Position numbers and translations under genes: made by a program. Source: Candidatus Melainabacteria bacterium (GTDB lineage: Bacteria; Cyanobacteriota; Vampirovibrionia; 2-02-FULL-35-15). From it: a stretch of 39,355 bases of DNA. Below, one piece after another: positions 3,767-29,946 of the stretch; the first letter of the stretch is position 1; the number at the start of each line of letters is the position of its first letter. The stretch spans positions 1 to 39,355 of the forward strand of contig JACQBQ010000050.1 of assembly GCA_016201905.1 (NCBI GenBank). Direction: 5' to 3'. The notes beneath the pieces were generated by a model. It was not told the DNA's origin, did no database searches, and worked only from the letters and a program-made list of their open reading frames with translations.

Positions 3767-4798
3767 TTAAATTACCGGTTCTTGCTTAGTCATACAGTGC
3801 AACCCGCCACCTTCTTGAATGAGTAATGAACAATCAATACCTACAATTTTTTTATCCGGAAAAACCTTTTTAAAAATTGCAAGAGCTTCTTTGTCAGTAT
3901 TGCAGTTAAATACAGGAACGATAACCCCTCCATTTACAAAAATAAAATTAGCATAAGACTTTGGTAACCTTTCCTTCTTTATTTCCATACGCTCTGGCAT
4001 AGGGAGTTCTATTACTTCAAGCTTATATCTTTTTTCTTTGTGTTTCCATTTCTTTAAATATTCAATACTTTGATTTAAGTGATCATAATTCCCATCTTTT
4101 TTATCATTTGATTTGCAAATTAAAACCTTTCTTGGATCTATAAATCTTGCAACATCATCTATATGGCCATCTGTATGATCCCCCTCAAGACCACGCTTTA
4201 GCCAGATTACCTCTTCAATGTTAAATGCAGATTTTAAAATATTTTCAATTTTATCCTTGCTTAGATTTGGATTTCTGTTTTTATTTAATAAGCATTGTTC
4301 TGTAGTTAATATAAGTCCATTACCGGAGAATTCTATAGATCCACCTTCTAAAACGATCGGGTATGATTCTATTTCTTGTCCCAAATACAATGCAATTTCT
4401 TTTGGAGCTTGATTATCCAGTTCCCATGGAGAAAATTTTCCTCCCCATGCATTAAATTCAAAATCAAGAAGGAGTGATTTCTTTTTTTTGCTGCTTGCAG
4501 TCTCAAGAAAAAACGGACCATAGTCGCGAATCCATATGTCATTGTTTGGAACGATTATTTTTTTTAACTTAAACTTACTTTTTTGAACAGGAAAAAACCT
4601 TTCAACTTCTTCTAACATTTCCTCGTTTGTAAGCAGGAGATTTACATCCTGGAGTTTTAGAATCTGTGAGATTAATTCCTGAAAGAATCTTTTTATTTCA
4701 GGCAATCTTTTTCTACCCCATTCTTTTTCATTGTGAGGCCATGAAAGCCAGGTGGTACGCTGCTTTTCCCATTCAGGTGGGTATCTTCTGTTGTTCAC
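3767..4798 (-). CDS. aguA: Agmatine deiminase
   Basis: This cytosolic enzyme hydrolyses agmatine to N-carbamoylputrescine and ammonia. The 343-residue length fits the family. Visible hallmarks are the N-terminal WPHNEKEW, NNDIWIRDYGPFF, the EGGSIEFSG strand, GLEGDHTDGHIDD with the catalytic His/Asp, and the C-terminal GGGLHCMTKQ with the nucleophilic Cys of the guanidino-group-modifying fold. It follows aguB on the same strand with a 1-bp overlap (TAATG-type junction is not needed; the stop and start share base 4798), so the two are translationally coupled and make putrescine from agmatine. No arginine decarboxylase is in the window. Confidence 0.95.
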   Translation of the reverse strand: MNNRRYPPEWEKQRTTWLSWPHNEKEWGRKRLPEIKRFFQELISQILKLQDVNLLLTNEEMLEEVERFFPVQKSKFKLKKIIVPNNDIWIRDYGPFFLETASSKKKKSLLLDFEFNAWGGKFSPWELDNQAPKEIALYLGQEIESYPIVLEGGSIEFSGNGLILTTEQCLLNKNRNPNLSKDKIENILKSAFNIEEVIWLKRGLEGDHTDGHIDDVARFIDPRKVLICKSNDKKDGNYDHLNQSIEYLKKWKHKEKRYKLEVIELPMPERMEIKKERLPKSYANFIFVNGGVIVPVFNCNTDKEALAIFKKVFPDKKIVGIDCSLLIQEGGGLHCMTKQEPVI

Positions 4799-7831: not shown

Positions 7832-8560
7832 ATGTCCACAGTTCCAAAATTTAAGTTAAAAGACTCAAAACCAGATAGTGACTTCGTTCAGTGGAATGAA
7901 TCAATGTCTCATAAACAGGATATTGATTTGTATTATGAAGGTTCTCATCCGCTTATTAGGTGGGTTGAAAAACTTAGATTAAAGATCATTATTGATTTAA
8001 TTAAAGAGCACTCAGAGAAAAACAATTTATCTAATCCTGTTATTGTTGAAGCTGGTTGTGGCACGGGACATGTTCTTCAGTCAATTGCTGAAAACATTAA
8101 AACAGATAATTTAATCGGGATTGATCCTCTTGAATGGTGGCTGGACAAAGCAAGGAAAAGACTGGGTGATAAAGCAAAGCTAATTAAAGGGTTTGCTGAA
8201 GATATACCGTTCGAAGACAAGTCAGTTCACTTTGCAATATGTACTGAAGTTATTGAACATGTAATAGATCCTACTGTTGTATTAAAAGAACTAAAACGCA
8301 TAATAAAAGATGATGGACTTATTGTAGTTTCTATTCCAAATGAAAAGCTGATTAATAGATTGAAGGATGTAATTGATTTTTTCAAGATTTATCAAAAACT
8401 TTTTTCAAACATCCCAAAACACAATGATGATGAATGGCATATACATAGCTTTGATCTAAATTTATTTAAAAAATATATCCCGGATGGACTTAAAATTCAG
8501 TCTGTAATTCCTCTTCCATCATTTATTTTGCCGTTGAGATACGTGATAACTCTTGTTTGA
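7832..8560 (+). CDS. Class I SAM-dependent methyltransferase
   Basis: A 242-residue Methyltransf_11-type protein. Motif I is IVEAGCGTGHVL (about 68-79), the acidic end of strand 2 is GIDPLEWW, and motif post-I/II is FAEDIPFEDKSVHFAICTEVIEHV, a typical hub of the fold. The acceptor substrate is unknown. The ATG has a good ribosome binding site, CGGAGAA. It may form the end of an OsmC-hflX transcript (33 bp after hflX). The 3' end overlaps the convergent zinc-ribbon methyltransferase gene by 38 bp. Confidence 0.85.
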   Translation: MSTVPKFKLKDSKPDSDFVQWNESMSHKQDIDLYYEGSHPLIRWVEKLRLKIIIDLIKEHSEKNNLSNPVIVEAGCGTGHVLQSIAENIKTDNLIGIDPLEWWLDKARKRLGDKAKLIKGFAEDIPFEDKSVHFAICTEVIEHVIDPTVVLKELKRIIKDDGLIVVSIPNEKLINRLKDVIDFFKIYQKLFSNIPKHNDDEWHIHSFDLNLFKKYIPDGLKIQSVIPLPSFILPLRYVITLV

Positions 8561-9509
8561 ATACACACAGCATGCTTGTGCTTTTACCAATAAAATTTTG
8601 AATTATTGCAATTGGAGTAAATAACAAGCTCAATGGCATTAGGTAAAAAGACATTCCATTTTTTAATTTTGATTTTGTAAGGCTTAAATTCTGGAAAACA
8701 TTTTGAATTGAAATCGACCATTGCCCAGGATCACAAATAGGCTCAGTTATTACTTCTGTGAACCCCAAATCCTTACCAACTAATTTTATATTTTTTTCGT
8801 TAAACAGGAAAGTATGTCTTGGGGCGTGGAAGCCAGCCCAATAATTTTTAAAGAATAAAAGCTCTAATGCATCGGTATTTGGTGTGATTAAAATTATTAT
8901 TCCATTTTTGGATAAATTGCTTTTACAGTTCTCTAAAACTTTTTTAGGATTTAAAAAATGTTCAATAACATTATTCATAATAATTACATCAAAAACTTCA
9001 TTGAACGGAAACCTCTCCTCGATATTTGATGCTTTAAGTTCTATGCCTTTTTCTTTTAGGCTTGAAAACACTCTGTCCGTAAAATCGCTCCCAGAAAGGC
9101 TTGTGTAACCTTTTTCCTGTAATGCTAAAAGAAGCTGACCATTTCCAAATCCGATTTCTAGGATTTTTAAGTCGTTATTTTTAATATCCTTGTTAAAGTA
9201 TTTTGTGATTTTATTTGCCAGATTTTTAAACTGAGTATTTTTTAGAGATGTAAACAAACTCTTTTTTACTGGTAGGTAATTTCTGTATTCATCAGGATAA
9301 AATCTTTGCAGAAGATTAATTTCAGGCAATGGATACTGGGAAATTAATCCACAATTTTTACAGAGTAAATAATCAACAGGTTTATATGTTTCATACTCAA
9401 GATCTTTAATACCCTTAAAAATCAATTCTTGATCTATGGAATTACATAGAATACAATTTACTTGCTTTATAATAGTCTTTTCTAAGATAGTATTAATCTC
9501 TGTAACCAA
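8523..9509 (-). CDS. Zinc-ribbon class I methyltransferase
   Basis: A 328-residue protein in two parts. An N-terminal four-cysteine knuckle (CILC about 19-22 and CKNC about 50-53) is typical of the methyltransferases found in sugar and secondary-metabolite pathways. The Methyltransf_23-like domain carries LKILEIGFGNGQLLLAL and DVIIMNNVIEHF. A hydrophobic C-terminal segment (about 285-305) may touch the membrane. The start is TTG at 9509, overlapping the upstream START-fold gene by 17 bp, which implies coupled expression. By context it may methylate the product of the adjacent oxygenase-like pair; that is inference. Confidence 0.8.
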   Translation of the reverse strand: MVTEINTILEKTIIKQVNCILCNSIDQELIFKGIKDLEYETYKPVDYLLCKNCGLISQYPLPEINLLQRFYPDEYRNYLPVKKSLFTSLKNTQFKNLANKITKYFNKDIKNNDLKILEIGFGNGQLLLALQEKGYTSLSGSDFTDRVFSSLKEKGIELKASNIEERFPFNEVFDVIIMNNVIEHFLNPKKVLENCKSNLSKNGIIILITPNTDALELLFFKNYWAGFHAPRHTFLFNEKNIKLVGKDLGFTEVITEPICDPGQWSISIQNVFQNLSLTKSKLKNGMSFYLMPLSLLFTPIAIIQNFIGKSTSMLCVFKQELSRISTAK

Positions 9510-10134
9510 GCTCTACACTTTCATCAAATGGTCGCTCTAAACCATCTTTTGTGTTTATAGCTGAAAAGCTTTTTATCGGTGGATTGAATTCATATTTTTT
9601 CACTTCAATTTTGCCAGGTTTTGGAAGTTTTTTATTTATGTAATCAATTCCGTAAAAATCTTTAAACCCTAAATTATGTACTTTCCAGCGACGAAGCCTC
9701 ATTGGAGCATCTTCTACCCATGTTGCATGAAACCAGCCCTGAAATAGTTTTTGAAACATTGACTGAAATACTTTAAAGAAAGGATGAGTATTTATATTAT
9801 AAATCACTGTCATATGCGAACGATTATTTGGCAAGTCCTTAAAATGAACTTCCATCTCAAGTAAAAAACCAATAGAGTCCTTGTGGAATGTTTTCATAAC
9901 ATTATTTTCCATAAGCTGAAGTGCAATTCCTGAGCAATGAAAAGGCAAAAGAGGCATTTTCATTTTTCTGTAAACCAGTGCCCAGCTGTCCTTTTCAGCT
10001 AATACTCTTGCTTGGTTATAGTACTTATAGTGTGTGCCTACCAAGTGTTCATGATCATAGTAATTCCACATTACAATTTCTTTAGGACAATCCATTTCAC
10101 CTTCGCATTTAAGTGTTAAAGTAACGTTTTTCAT
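9493..10134 (-). CDS. Candidate catalytic half of a split Rieske oxygenase (START-fold)
   Basis: A 213-residue protein with START/Bet v1-like (SRPBCC) character: alternating strands and a long C-terminal helix region. Near the N-terminus it has N24-YY-D27-HE-H30-LVGT-H35, matching NxxDxxHxxxxH, the mononuclear iron signature of Rieske non-heme iron oxygenases such as KshA and PaO. D142, in VEDAPMRLR, lies about 107 residues later, where the third (Asp) ligand is expected. The normal N-terminal Rieske domain is missing, but a separate Rieske protein is encoded just upstream on the same strand. Alternative: a non-catalytic SRPBCC lipid-binding protein with a chance match. Confidence 0.6.
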   Translation of the reverse strand: MKNVTLTLKCEGEMDCPKEIVMWNYYDHEHLVGTHYKYYNQARVLAEKDSWALVYRKMKMPLLPFHCSGIALQLMENNVMKTFHKDSIGFLLEMEVHFKDLPNNRSHMTVIYNINTHPFFKVFQSMFQKLFQGWFHATWVEDAPMRLRRWKVHNLGFKDFYGIDYINKKLPKPGKIEVKKYEFNPPIKSFSAINTKDGLERPFDESVELGYRD

Positions 10135-10145
10135 TTTTTATTATC

Positions 10146-10223
10146 GGAAAAATCTCGGCTCAAACGAGATTTTTCCTTTTCCCTCCCGACGCAAAAAATG
10201 TTCCAAGGAGGAACATTTTTTGC
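10146..10223. terminator. Two tandem perfect hairpins between the Rieske and START-fold genes
   Basis: Hairpin A has 12-bp arms GGAAAAATCTCG (10146-10157) and CGAGATTTTTCC (10165-10176). Hairpin B has 14-bp arms GCAAAAAATGTTCC (10191-10204) and GGAACATTTTTTGC (10210-10223). Between them is GGGAGGG-type purine sequence on the minus strand. Hairpin A ends 12 nt before the START-fold start codon. They could be terminators, mRNA processing/stability elements, or a switch that sets the ratio of the two proteins. Confidence 0.6.
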
Positions 10224-10277
10224 TTGTTGAATGTTTTAAATAAAAATAGGCGACTCTTCATAATTGAACTCTTTTCT

Positions 10278-10643
10278 TTATCCTAATAGATTAATGTAAA
10301 TTTTTTCATCGATAACTTTTATGTCATATTGCCGAAGAGGAAGTCCGGAATGAGTTAAGCATGAACCATCTTTTGCAGAATATTGCCAGTTATGCCAGAG
10401 GCATGTAAAAACACCTTTTTTACATTTGTGGTAGCCTACAGGTCCGCCAAAATGTCTGCAGACATTGCTTATAGCTTTTATTTCTCCTTCATATTCATAT
10501 AACAAAATATCGTGGTCATCAATCCAGCGTGTTAACTGACCATCTTTTTTAAGTTCTTTTAAGGTAGCTAAAAACTGGTAAGTTGCTTCGGTGCCTTCTT
10601 TGTTATTAACTTTAATTGTTTCTGTTATTTCTGTACTCATCAT
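10278..10643 (-). CDS. Rieske [2Fe-2S] ferredoxin-like protein
   Basis: A 121-residue single-domain Rieske protein. The cluster ligands are C62-x-H64 (VCRHFGGPV) and C81-x2-H84 (TCLWHNWQY), spaced as in Rieske ferredoxins and in the N-terminal domain of ring-hydroxylating oxygenase alpha subunits. GPVGYHKCKKG lies between them and KDGSCLTHSGLPLRQY follows. No signal peptide or membrane anchor is present, so it is not a cytochrome bc/b6f Rieske. It is followed on the same strand, after 143 bp and two hairpins, by the START-fold protein with the mononuclear iron motif. TATAAT lies 5 nt before the ATG and no Shine-Dalgarno sequence is seen. Confidence 0.9.
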   Translation of the reverse strand: MMSTEITETIKVNNKEGTEATYQFLATLKELKKDGQLTRWIDDHDILLYEYEGEIKAISNVCRHFGGPVGYHKCKKGVFTCLWHNWQYSAKDGSCLTHSGLPLRQYDIKVIDEKIYINLLG

Positions 10644-28114: not shown

Positions 28115-29323
28115 ATGACCAAAGTTAAAAATAATTATTTTCCTCTTTTAGTTGCAGTAGCATTTGCTTATTTTGCTTTTGGTGCCATTACAAATGTAGC
28201 AGGTGCAATTGTCCCTAAAATTAAAGAGACATATCATGTAACCGGCTCAGCATCAAGTTTTTTGGCCGCAGTGTTTTTTATAGCTTATGGCTTAACATCA
28301 GTCCCGTTTGGAATTCTTATAAATAAATATGGGACTAAACTAACACTTGTATTTGGCTCATTAATTACTACTATTGGTGTGTTTATGTTTGCAAGCGTAC
28401 CTGGTTATTATGCAAATATGGCAGCAATGTTTATTTGTGGAGTAGGAATTACTGCTATTCAAGTAGCCATGAATCCTCTTGTAAAAGAAATCAGCAATCC
28501 TGAAAAATATTCAAGGAACTTAACTTTATTTATGGTGTTGTTTGGAGTAGGCTCAACAGTTGCACCTTATATCGTAACTTTTATTAAATCACGAGGACTG
28601 GAATGGAATTATAATTACTGGCTTTTTACAATTATTTCAATAATAATGCTTTTTGGTTTAGCGTTTCCAAAATATCCGGAAGAAAAAAGACAAGAAGCAG
28701 GGAGTAAGAAACAGGATGGCAATTTCACTGAACTTTTAAAAGATCCTTTGATGATTATGTATGCCCTTGCAATTTTTCTCTATGTGGGTGTAGAAGTTGG
28801 CATTGCTTATAATATTGCATTGTTTTTGGAAGATGTTCATAAGGTTTCTAATGTGTTAGGAAATCATGCAGAAGCTGCAAAAAATGCAGCAGTTGGAAAC
28901 TATTGGTTTGGATTACTTATTGGCAGGCTCATTGGCAGCTTTGTTCTTGATAAGATTTCAACTAAAAAAGCAATCCAGATTTATATTTCATGTGCTGCAA
29001 TTTCTTTAGCTGTTGCTGTCTTTTCAAAAAATTTAACGCTTGTTTTGTGGGCATTTCCATTTGTAGGTTTCTTTATTTCTATTATGTTTCCTTCAATCTA
29101 TGGACTTGCAATTGATTCTTATAAAAAAGAGTACTCAAGTATGGTTTCAGGAATACTTTGTACTGCTATTATAGGTGGAGCTGTGATTGCACCTATTATT
29201 GCTAAGGTAGCAGAAATTACAGGCTCAGTAGCAGAACCAAACTGGCATCTTGGAATGTTCATTGCTTTTGCTTGCTATGCATATATTTTTACTGTGGGTA
29301 TTTGGGCTAAGCAAAAAGGATAA
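28115..29323 (+). CDS. MFS transporter, FucP-like
   Basis: A 402-residue major facilitator protein with about 12 membrane helices. It has the family's TM1 sequence AFAYFAFGAITNVAG, the cytoplasmic loop INKYGTKLTLVFGSL between helices 2 and 3, and a central charged loop (about 190-210). FucP/GluP-type sugar:H+ symporters of the inner membrane look like this, but the substrate is not determinable. The stop overlaps the next reading frame as TAATG. It is divergent from the fad operon. Confidence 0.85.
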   Translation: MTKVKNNYFPLLVAVAFAYFAFGAITNVAGAIVPKIKETYHVTGSASSFLAAVFFIAYGLTSVPFGILINKYGTKLTLVFGSLITTIGVFMFASVPGYYANMAAMFICGVGITAIQVAMNPLVKEISNPEKYSRNLTLFMVLFGVGSTVAPYIVTFIKSRGLEWNYNYWLFTIISIIMLFGLAFPKYPEEKRQEAGSKKQDGNFTELLKDPLMIMYALAIFLYVGVEVGIAYNIALFLEDVHKVSNVLGNHAEAAKNAAVGNYWFGLLIGRLIGSFVLDKISTKKAIQIYISCAAISLAVAVFSKNLTLVLWAFPFVGFFISIMFPSIYGLAIDSYKKEYSSMVSGILCTAIIGGAVIAPIIAKVAEITGSVAEPNWHLGMFIAFACYAYIFTVGIWAKQKG

Positions 29324-29946
29324 TGTACATGCGTCATTGCGAGGAGCATCAGCGACGAAGCAATCCAGCTAACTATTTCAAAGTTACGTTTTCTAGATTG
29401 CTTCGTCGGTTCTTTGAACCTCCTCGCAATGACGTGGTTAGGTCAGTCCTTTTGTTTTTTGCCTCTATTGCTATTTCTATATCTCATGCCCAAGCCAAAC
29501 TTGGAAATAAAGTTCATGAAAATGAGAAACAATTTGGGAAAGAACTAATAACAAAACAATTTTCTGAAACTGAGAAAAATTTTACCGGTAAAAAGATATA
29601 TCAGTTTCCATTACATGGCTGGCAGGTAGAGGCTATATACAGAGATGGAAGATCCTTTTCTGAAACAGCAAGACCTAAGGGCAATAAAGTTAAAAATCAG
29701 ATGTTAACAGAGCGGGAAGCAAATGTTATTGCTGACATGCTTTATCCCCGAAAAGACCGCGGATCTTATAAAAAACAAATCGACAATGCTAATTTTGTTA
29801 GCCATTTTTTTGAATATGGAGTAGTTAGCTATGAAATGGAGCTTGATAAAAGAAGAAAAAAACATGTAGGTGTGGTTGGAGTTAGAACTGTTTTATATAG
29901 TGATGGCGATAAGTTTAAAAATATTATGGTTAATGCCTATCATTGA
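29323..29946 (+). CDS. Predicted secreted protein whose N-terminus is a translated palindromic repeat
   Basis: The reading frame starts at ATG 29323, overlapping the transporter stop (TAATG). Its first 37 codons are the palindromic repeat at 29332-29434, translated as RHCEEHQRRSNP...LLRRFFEPPRNDV, a peptide typical of translated CATTGCGAGG-type palindromes. Codon 38 is GTG (29434), after which comes a clean signal peptide VRSVLLFFASIAISISHAQA. The mature part (about 115 residues after SHAQA, to residue 207) is basic, has a Q-F-P-L-H-G-W-Q-V-E-A strand and is unrecognised. Either the true start is GTG 29434 or the repeat is part of the protein; the first would give 170 residues. Confidence 0.6.
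   Translation: MYMRHCEEHQRRSNPANYFKVTFSRLLRRFFEPPRNDVVRSVLLFFASIAISISHAQAKLGNKVHENEKQFGKELITKQFSETEKNFTGKKIYQFPLHGWQVEAIYRDGRSFSETARPKGNKVKNQMLTEREANVIADMLYPRKDRGSYKKQIDNANFVSHFFEYGVVSYEMELDKRRKKHVGVVGVRTVLYSDGDKFKNIMVNAYH
29332..29434. repeat. REP/MITE-type palindrome of the CATTGCGAGG class
   Basis: Outer arms CGTCATTGCGAGGAG (29332-29346) and CTCCTCGCAATGACG (29420-29434) are perfectly complementary over 15 bp. Inner arms CGACGAAGCAATC (29353-29365) and GATTGCTTCGTCG (29396-29408) are perfect over 13 bp. Elements with these arms are widespread in low-GC genomes with many repeats. It sits entirely within the 5' part of an open frame. Confidence 0.85.

What the first reader, a model, noticed from the sequence alone, without database searches (positions are those of the whole stretch)
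9493..10643. A split Rieske non-heme iron oxygenase encoded by two genes
Seen: a 121-residue Rieske protein (C62-x-H64, C81-x2-H84) is followed on the same strand by a 213-residue START-fold protein with N24-x2-D27-x2-H30-x4-H35 and a candidate third ligand D142. Known: NxxDxxHxxxxH is the mononuclear iron motif of Rieske oxygenase alpha subunits, where Rieske and catalytic domains are normally one polypeptide. Inferred: the two halves assemble into one enzyme, and the 17-bp-overlapping zinc-ribbon methyltransferase acts on its product. This is the best candidate for an undescribed system in the window.
Basis: partly seen in the sequence, partly recalled or inferred. Interest (0 to 1): 0.82.

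Follow-up and report, generated by a model that had tools for sequence, protein, structure and literature searches.

The report
Oxygenase split into two genes
Two neighbouring genes in a non-photosynthetic relative of cyanobacteria appear to encode the electron-relay half and the iron-catalyst half of an oxygen-using enzyme that is normally one protein; the two genes are always found together, but no activity or substrate is known.

Summary
A 121-aa Rieske protein (10643→10278, minus) is followed by a 213-aa protein (10134→9493, minus) with N24-x2-D27-x2-H30-x4-H35 and D142. The genome is a Candidatus Melainabacteria (Vampirovibrionia) MAG. The 213-aa protein matches no Pfam, NCBIfam or PDB family. 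In all nine relatives found it lies directly downstream of the same Rieske protein, and the five proposed iron-site residues are invariant. In 382 genomes of the class, both proteins occur in the same 9 genomes and in no others. AlphaFold gives a helix-grip (SRPBCC) fold at modest confidence, with N24, D27 and H30 in helix 1 and D142 in the C-terminal helix, the places they hold in Rieske oxygenases. Offsets N/D/H/H 0-3-6-11 are those of conventional oxygenases; D lies at +118, against +122 in SxtT. Sequence similarity to oxygenase catalytic domains is not detectable beyond this motif. Best reading: a two-gene Rieske oxygenase. The methyltransferase link is only partial (7 of 10 loci). Split Rieske oxygenases have precedents (NdmC/NdmD; Micromonas CAO), so this is a new variant, not a new kind. 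Enzyme activity, complex formation and substrate are untested.

The parts
10278..10643 (-). Rieske [2Fe-2S] protein, 121 aa (P0002)
   Evidence: Pfam Rieske 54.3 bits; orthologue directly upstream of the catalytic gene in all 10 loci
10452..10460 (-). first cluster motif C62-x-H64
   Evidence: translation; invariant in A2
10392..10403 (-). second cluster motif C81-x2-H84 (C-L-W-H-N-W)
   Evidence: translation; invariant in A2; 23-residue span C..H as in 29 of 30 conventional oxygenases compared
9493..10134 (-). catalytic-half protein, 213 aa (P0001), predicted helix-grip (SRPBCC/START-like) fold, no named family
10030..10065 (-). iron motif N24-x2-D27-x2-H30-x4-H35
   Evidence: invariant in 10/10; N24, D27 and H30 in helix 1 of the model; 0-3-6-11 offsets shared with conventional oxygenases
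9709..9711 (-). candidate third ligand D142 (motif W-x-E-D-x-P-M-R)
   Evidence: invariant in 10/10; in C-terminal helix 118-154; 107 residues after H35 versus 110-142 in 30 conventional oxygenases
10135..10277 (-). 143-bp gap between the two genes with a dispersed two-hairpin element (hairpins 10191-10223 and 10146-10176)
8523..9509 (-). Methyltransf_23 protein with N-terminal cysteine pairs; facultative partner
   Evidence: Pfam; orthologue follows the pair in 7 of 10 loci, the window included

Best explanation
The two genes encode one Rieske non-heme iron oxygenase divided between two polypeptides. The Rieske protein carries the [2Fe-2S] cluster and hands electrons to the 213-aa protein, whose helix-grip fold would hold a mononuclear iron on H30, H35 and D142. 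D27 would be the aspartate that bridges cluster and iron, and N24 the usual second-sphere asparagine. The iron would then activate O2 to hydroxylate an unknown substrate. Shown: the genes, their obligate pairing, invariance of the residues, the Rieske signature and the fold prediction. Inferred: iron binding, assembly (probably three Rieske plus three catalytic chains in place of the usual alpha3), electron path, O2 chemistry, and an external ferredoxin or general reductase as donor. The substrate is unknown; the flanking methyltransferase, mannosyltransferase-like and nucleotide-sugar genes at some loci faintly suggest a surface glycan or lipid.
For: Adjacency Rieske-catalytic in 10/10 loci, including three of a second family and one 'Planctomycetota' contig with different flanks. 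Independent searches with each protein hit the same 9 of 382 genomes. N24, D27, H30, H35, D142 and the four cluster ligands are invariant. Helix-grip topology with the motif in helix 1 and D142 in the last helix. Offsets equal SxtT's Asn158/His164/His169 and nearly its Asp280; VanA-type oxygenases have the same D-x2-H-x4-H frame and a D 110-142 residues on, often in an E-D context. An in-frame read-through of relative L007 gives a two-domain model whose top 50 PDB matches are all Rieske oxygenases (SxtT/GxtA, E about 2e-11). Purifying selection on both genes. Known split precedents.
Against: No significant sequence or profile similarity of the 213-aa protein to oxygenase catalytic domains (hhalign E=0.85). 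Foldseek with the isolated model favours aromatase/cyclase and other SRPBCC proteins, with no oxygenase in the top 50. The two-domain model aligns with TM only about 0.24-0.32, so domain placement is not reproduced, and its Rieske part may drive the match. The Rieske tree places the clade nearer free-standing Rieske proteins than oxygenase alpha subunits, weakly. The genome has one NAD_binding_1 protein, which looks like PyrK, so no dedicated reductase of that type was found.
Confidence: 0.72

Rival explanations
1. The 213-aa protein is a non-oxygenase SRPBCC protein (ligand carrier, cyclase or lipid-binding protein) and the Rieske protein is a ferredoxin that serves it or another enzyme.
For: Best Foldseek matches of the isolated model are TcmN/ZhuI aromatase-cyclases and lipid transfer proteins; no oxygenase family match; the Rieske tree leans towards free-standing Rieske proteins.
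Against: Invariant N-x2-D-x2-H-x4-H plus D in the expected helix; 0 of 30 Polyketide_cyc2-type control proteins carry D-x2-H-x4-H; strict pairing with a Rieske protein.
Confidence: 0.15
2. The protein binds a metal through the His/Asp residues but is not an O2-activating enzyme (for example a hydrolase or isomerase, or an iron redox relay); H28 and E29, also invariant, may take part.
For: H28, E29 and H84 are also invariant; no substrate or reductase known.
Against: A Rieske partner implies one-electron delivery; spacing matches the oxygenase triad exactly in helix 1.
Confidence: 0.1
3. The split is an artefact: one oxygenase gene broken by a frameshift, sequencing error or inserted element.
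For: 143-bp gap with a repeat element in this genome; in L007 and L009 the two ORFs share a frame and are parted by a stop and one or two codons.
Against: Ten loci, different relative frames, each catalytic gene with its own ATG, low pN/pS on both genes; gap -1 to 37 bp elsewhere.
Confidence: 0.03

Closest known systems
NdmC / NdmD / NdmE (Pseudomonas putida CBB5 N7-demethylase)
   Same: Catalytic non-heme iron subunit without its own Rieske domain; the cluster comes from another polypeptide (PMC4408171)
   Different: There the Rieske domain is fused to the reductase NdmD and a GST-like NdmE is needed; here the Rieske protein is free-standing and no reductase or NdmE-like gene is adjacent
Micromonas pusilla chlorophyllide a oxygenase (CAO in two chains)
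   Same: One Rieske oxygenase divided over two polypeptide chains (PMC9615114)
   Different: Eukaryotic, acts on chlorophyllide; here a non-photosynthetic bacterium, and a catalytic protein with no detectable sequence similarity to known oxygenases
SxtT/GxtA and VanA-type alpha-only Rieske oxygenases
   Same: Rieske plus helix-grip domain; same N/D/H/H frame and similar distance to the Asp ligand; about the same total size (334 vs about 320-390 aa)
   Different: One polypeptide; 81-88 residues between the last cluster His and the Asn, against 60 in all here; detectable family profile (VanA_C), absent here
SRPBCC/START-fold aromatase-cyclases (TcmN ARO/CYC, ZhuI)
   Same: Overall predicted fold
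   Different: To my knowledge no Rieske partner and no D-x2-H-x4-H plus Asp iron site

Membership tests
Rieske non-heme iron oxygenase | Rieske [2Fe-2S] ligands C-x-H ... C-x2-H | tested here: met
   Pfam Rieske 54.3 bits and invariant ligands, on the separate protein
Rieske non-heme iron oxygenase | Helix-grip (SRPBCC) catalytic domain | tested here: met
   Predicted topology strand-helix-six strands-helix (mean pLDDT 64); Foldseek hits are SRPBCC proteins
Rieske non-heme iron oxygenase | N-x2-D-x2-H-x4-H in helix 1 and an Asp in the C-terminal helix | tested here: met
   Invariant in 10/10, right secondary-structure elements, near-identical spacing; 3D distances not measured
Rieske non-heme iron oxygenase | Sequence homology to a known catalytic-domain family (PF00848, PF19112, others) | tested here: not met
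   No Pfam/NCBIfam match; hhalign E 0.85 with VanA-type set; the query profile is shallow (Neff 1.7)
Rieske non-heme iron oxygenase | Both centres on one polypeptide (usual form) | tested here: not met
   Two genes in 10/10 loci; NdmC/NdmD and Micromonas CAO are accepted exceptions
Rieske non-heme iron oxygenase | Trimer with cluster-iron contact across subunits | not testable with these tools
   Only single chains can be modelled; coordinates not returned
Rieske non-heme iron oxygenase | Fe(II)- and O2-dependent oxidation of a substrate | not testable with these tools
   Needs the bench
NdmCDE type | Rieske domain fused to reductase, with NdmE-like GST | tested here: not met
   Rieske protein is 121 aa and stands alone; the neighbouring genes examined include no reductase or GST partner next to the pair

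The most novel reading that the evidence does not exclude
A Rieske-oxygenase-like enzyme in which both halves are free-standing, assembled in Vampirovibrionia from a ferredoxin-like Rieske protein and a minimal iron-binding START protein, rather than by fission of a known alpha subunit: a two-part oxygenase family with no sequence-detectable relatives.
Probability: 0.3. Interest if true: 0.72.

Novelty: new variant of a known kind. Interest (0 to 1): 0.56.

Why it matters
If true, this is a small bacterial model in which the electron-delivery and O2-activating halves of a Rieske oxygenase can be expressed, mutated and titrated separately. That would allow direct tests of inter-subunit electron transfer and of the bridging aspartate, which are hard to isolate when both centres share a chain. 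It would also add an oxygen-using enzyme to lineages sister to the photosynthetic cyanobacteria, and a catalytic-domain family that current profile libraries miss.

Tried and rejected
Profile-profile comparison with VanA-type, Ring_hydroxyl_A and Polyketide_cyc2 sets: nothing significant; the VanA alignment (E=0.85) did put the motif in register, and the Ring_hydroxyl_A set used there held only three sequences. PDB sequence searches with protein and profile: no relative. Viral contigs and plasmids: none. 386 genomes of the phylum: hits only in the same class; 392 genomes of the phylum of the 'Planctomycetota' contig: only that contig's own genome, so the contig may be mis-binned or the pair transferred. 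Rieske-domain tree: leans to free-standing Rieske proteins but weakly supported (88/78). Frameshift artefact: rejected. Dedicated reductase: none found with PF00175. Rfam for the gap element: nothing above gathering score.

Full report
What is there. On the minus strand of the window a 121-aa Rieske protein (10643→10278) is followed by a 213-aa protein (10134→9493) and then by a Methyltransf_23 protein (9509→8523). The closest relatives are MAGs named Candidatus Melainabacteria, so the genome (2.28 Mb, 98.9% complete) belongs to the Vampirovibrionia, the non-photosynthetic relatives of cyanobacteria. The Rieske protein is unambiguous (Pfam Rieske, E=1.3e-14). The 213-aa protein has no Pfam, NCBIfam or PDB relative.

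Pairing. Ten distinct members of the 213-aa family were found: the window, L007-L013, and L023 and L024 from two genomes of a second family (G108, G092), to which L012 (G040) also belongs. In every one the Rieske gene lies immediately upstream on the same strand, with a gap of -1 to 37 bp, except 143 bp in the window. Searching 382 genomes of the class separately with each protein returned the same nine genomes and no others. Related species are not independent samples, but the pair is kept in two families and on a 'Planctomycetota' contig with different flanking genes. Both genes are under strong purifying selection: pN 0.07-0.30 against pS 0.65-0.92, with synonymous sites saturated in several comparisons; finite omega values are 0.04-0.16.

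Residues. N24, D27, H30, H35 and D142 are invariant in all ten sequences, as are the four cluster ligands of the Rieske partner in the eight aligned. Over 60 other columns of the 213-aa protein are invariant too, so conservation alone does not single these five out. N-x2-D-x2-H-x4-H occurs in 0.14% of shuffles of this protein, and D-x2-H-x4-H is in none of 30 Polyketide_cyc2-type control proteins. The 0-6-11 offsets of N/H/H are those of SxtT (Asn158, His164, His169), and the candidate third ligand lies at +118 against +122 for Asp280 (PMC7293229). In 30 VanA-type oxygenases fetched here D-x2-H-x4-H is conserved (one member lacks one residue of the last spacer), and an Asp, often preceded by Glu, follows 110-142 residues after the second His, against 107 here. 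The cluster motif spans 23 residues in the window protein and in 29 of the 30. The pair's combined length (334 aa) is that of an alpha-only oxygenase.

Fold. AlphaFold on the ten-sequence alignment gives strand-helix-six strands-long helix, the helix-grip topology, with N24, D27 and H30 in the first helix and D142 in the last (mean pLDDT 64; residues 31-37 and the tail are poor). Against the PDB the isolated model matches SRPBCC proteins generally, best TcmN and ZhuI, with no Rieske oxygenase in the top 50. In relative L007 the two genes share a frame and are parted by a TAA and two codons; reading that stop as a residue gave a two-domain model whose top 50 PDB matches are all Rieske oxygenases, led by SxtT and GxtA at E about 2e-11. 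TM-scores of 0.24-0.32 show that the relative placement of the domains is not reproduced, and the Rieske part may carry much of the score. This supports the composition, not the docking.

What does not fit. No sequence or profile method links the 213-aa protein to a known oxygenase catalytic family; the local alignment with VanA-type enzymes puts the motif in register but is not significant (E=0.85). In a Rieske-domain tree the split clade falls with free-standing Rieske proteins rather than alpha subunits, with weak support (88/78). So function-like-an-oxygenase is better supported than descent from a known alpha subunit. The only NAD_binding_1 protein in the genome looks like PyrK, so the electron donor is probably a general one. 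The genome also has a 443-aa one-piece Rieske protein with a D-x2-H-x4-H motif (L004).

Methyltransferase and context. The methyltransferase orthologue follows the pair in the six same-family loci (window included) and in L010, where it is followed by a mannosyltransferase-like gene, but it is missing at all three loci of the second family. One of those (L025) has mannosyltransferase-like, WbqC and DegT genes on the opposite strand upstream of the pair; another (L026) has YfhO and acyltransferase genes nearby. A surface glycan or lipid substrate is a guess. The 17-bp overlap rests on a TTG start that relatives do not share.

Known systems. Split Rieske oxygenases exist: NdmC lacks a Rieske domain and uses one on the reductase NdmD (PMC4408171), and Micromonas CAO is found in two chains (PMC9615114). 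What differs here is that both halves are free-standing in a bacterium and that the catalytic half belongs to a family that profile libraries do not recognise. I therefore call it a new variant of a known kind. That the system is undescribed rests on the searches here and on an open-access paper library only.

Verdict. Observation confirmed; interpretation partly supported. Confidence 0.72 that the pair works as a two-gene Rieske oxygenase; iron binding, assembly, electron transfer and chemistry are inferred.

Noticed in passing
window 10146-10223, and loci L122-L146 of the same genome: A dispersed two-hairpin element (25 further matches in the genome). The second hairpin GGAAAAATnnnG...CnnnATTTTTCC varies with compensatory changes, and in 16 copies it ends 7-23 nt before a possible start codon of an open frame of 60 aa or more in the same orientation, among them the 213-aa gene here; not seen in the relatives' loci fetched. 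It looks like a repeated 5' leader or a mobile element with a fixed position; no Rfam family.
   Followed up: partly
L004 667-1998 (same genome, contig C20): A one-piece 443-aa Rieske protein with a D-x2-H-x4-H motif occurs in the same genome, so one-piece and two-piece forms may coexist.
   Followed up: no
L007 10722-11840 and L011 5730-6830: The agmatine deiminase-like genes carry an in-frame insert (VIASE[RQ]SERSNPDRDCFVA[NK]APRND) that the window copy (3767-4798) lacks; a similar sequence opens the ORF at window 29323-29946. Looks like a coding palindromic repeat.
   Followed up: no
L010 (JACQRL010000432.1): A contig labelled Planctomycetota carries the Rieske-catalytic-methyltransferase trio (first two genes 66-67% identical to the window's); none of the other genomes of that phylum searched has the family, so mis-binning or gene transfer.
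   Followed up: partly
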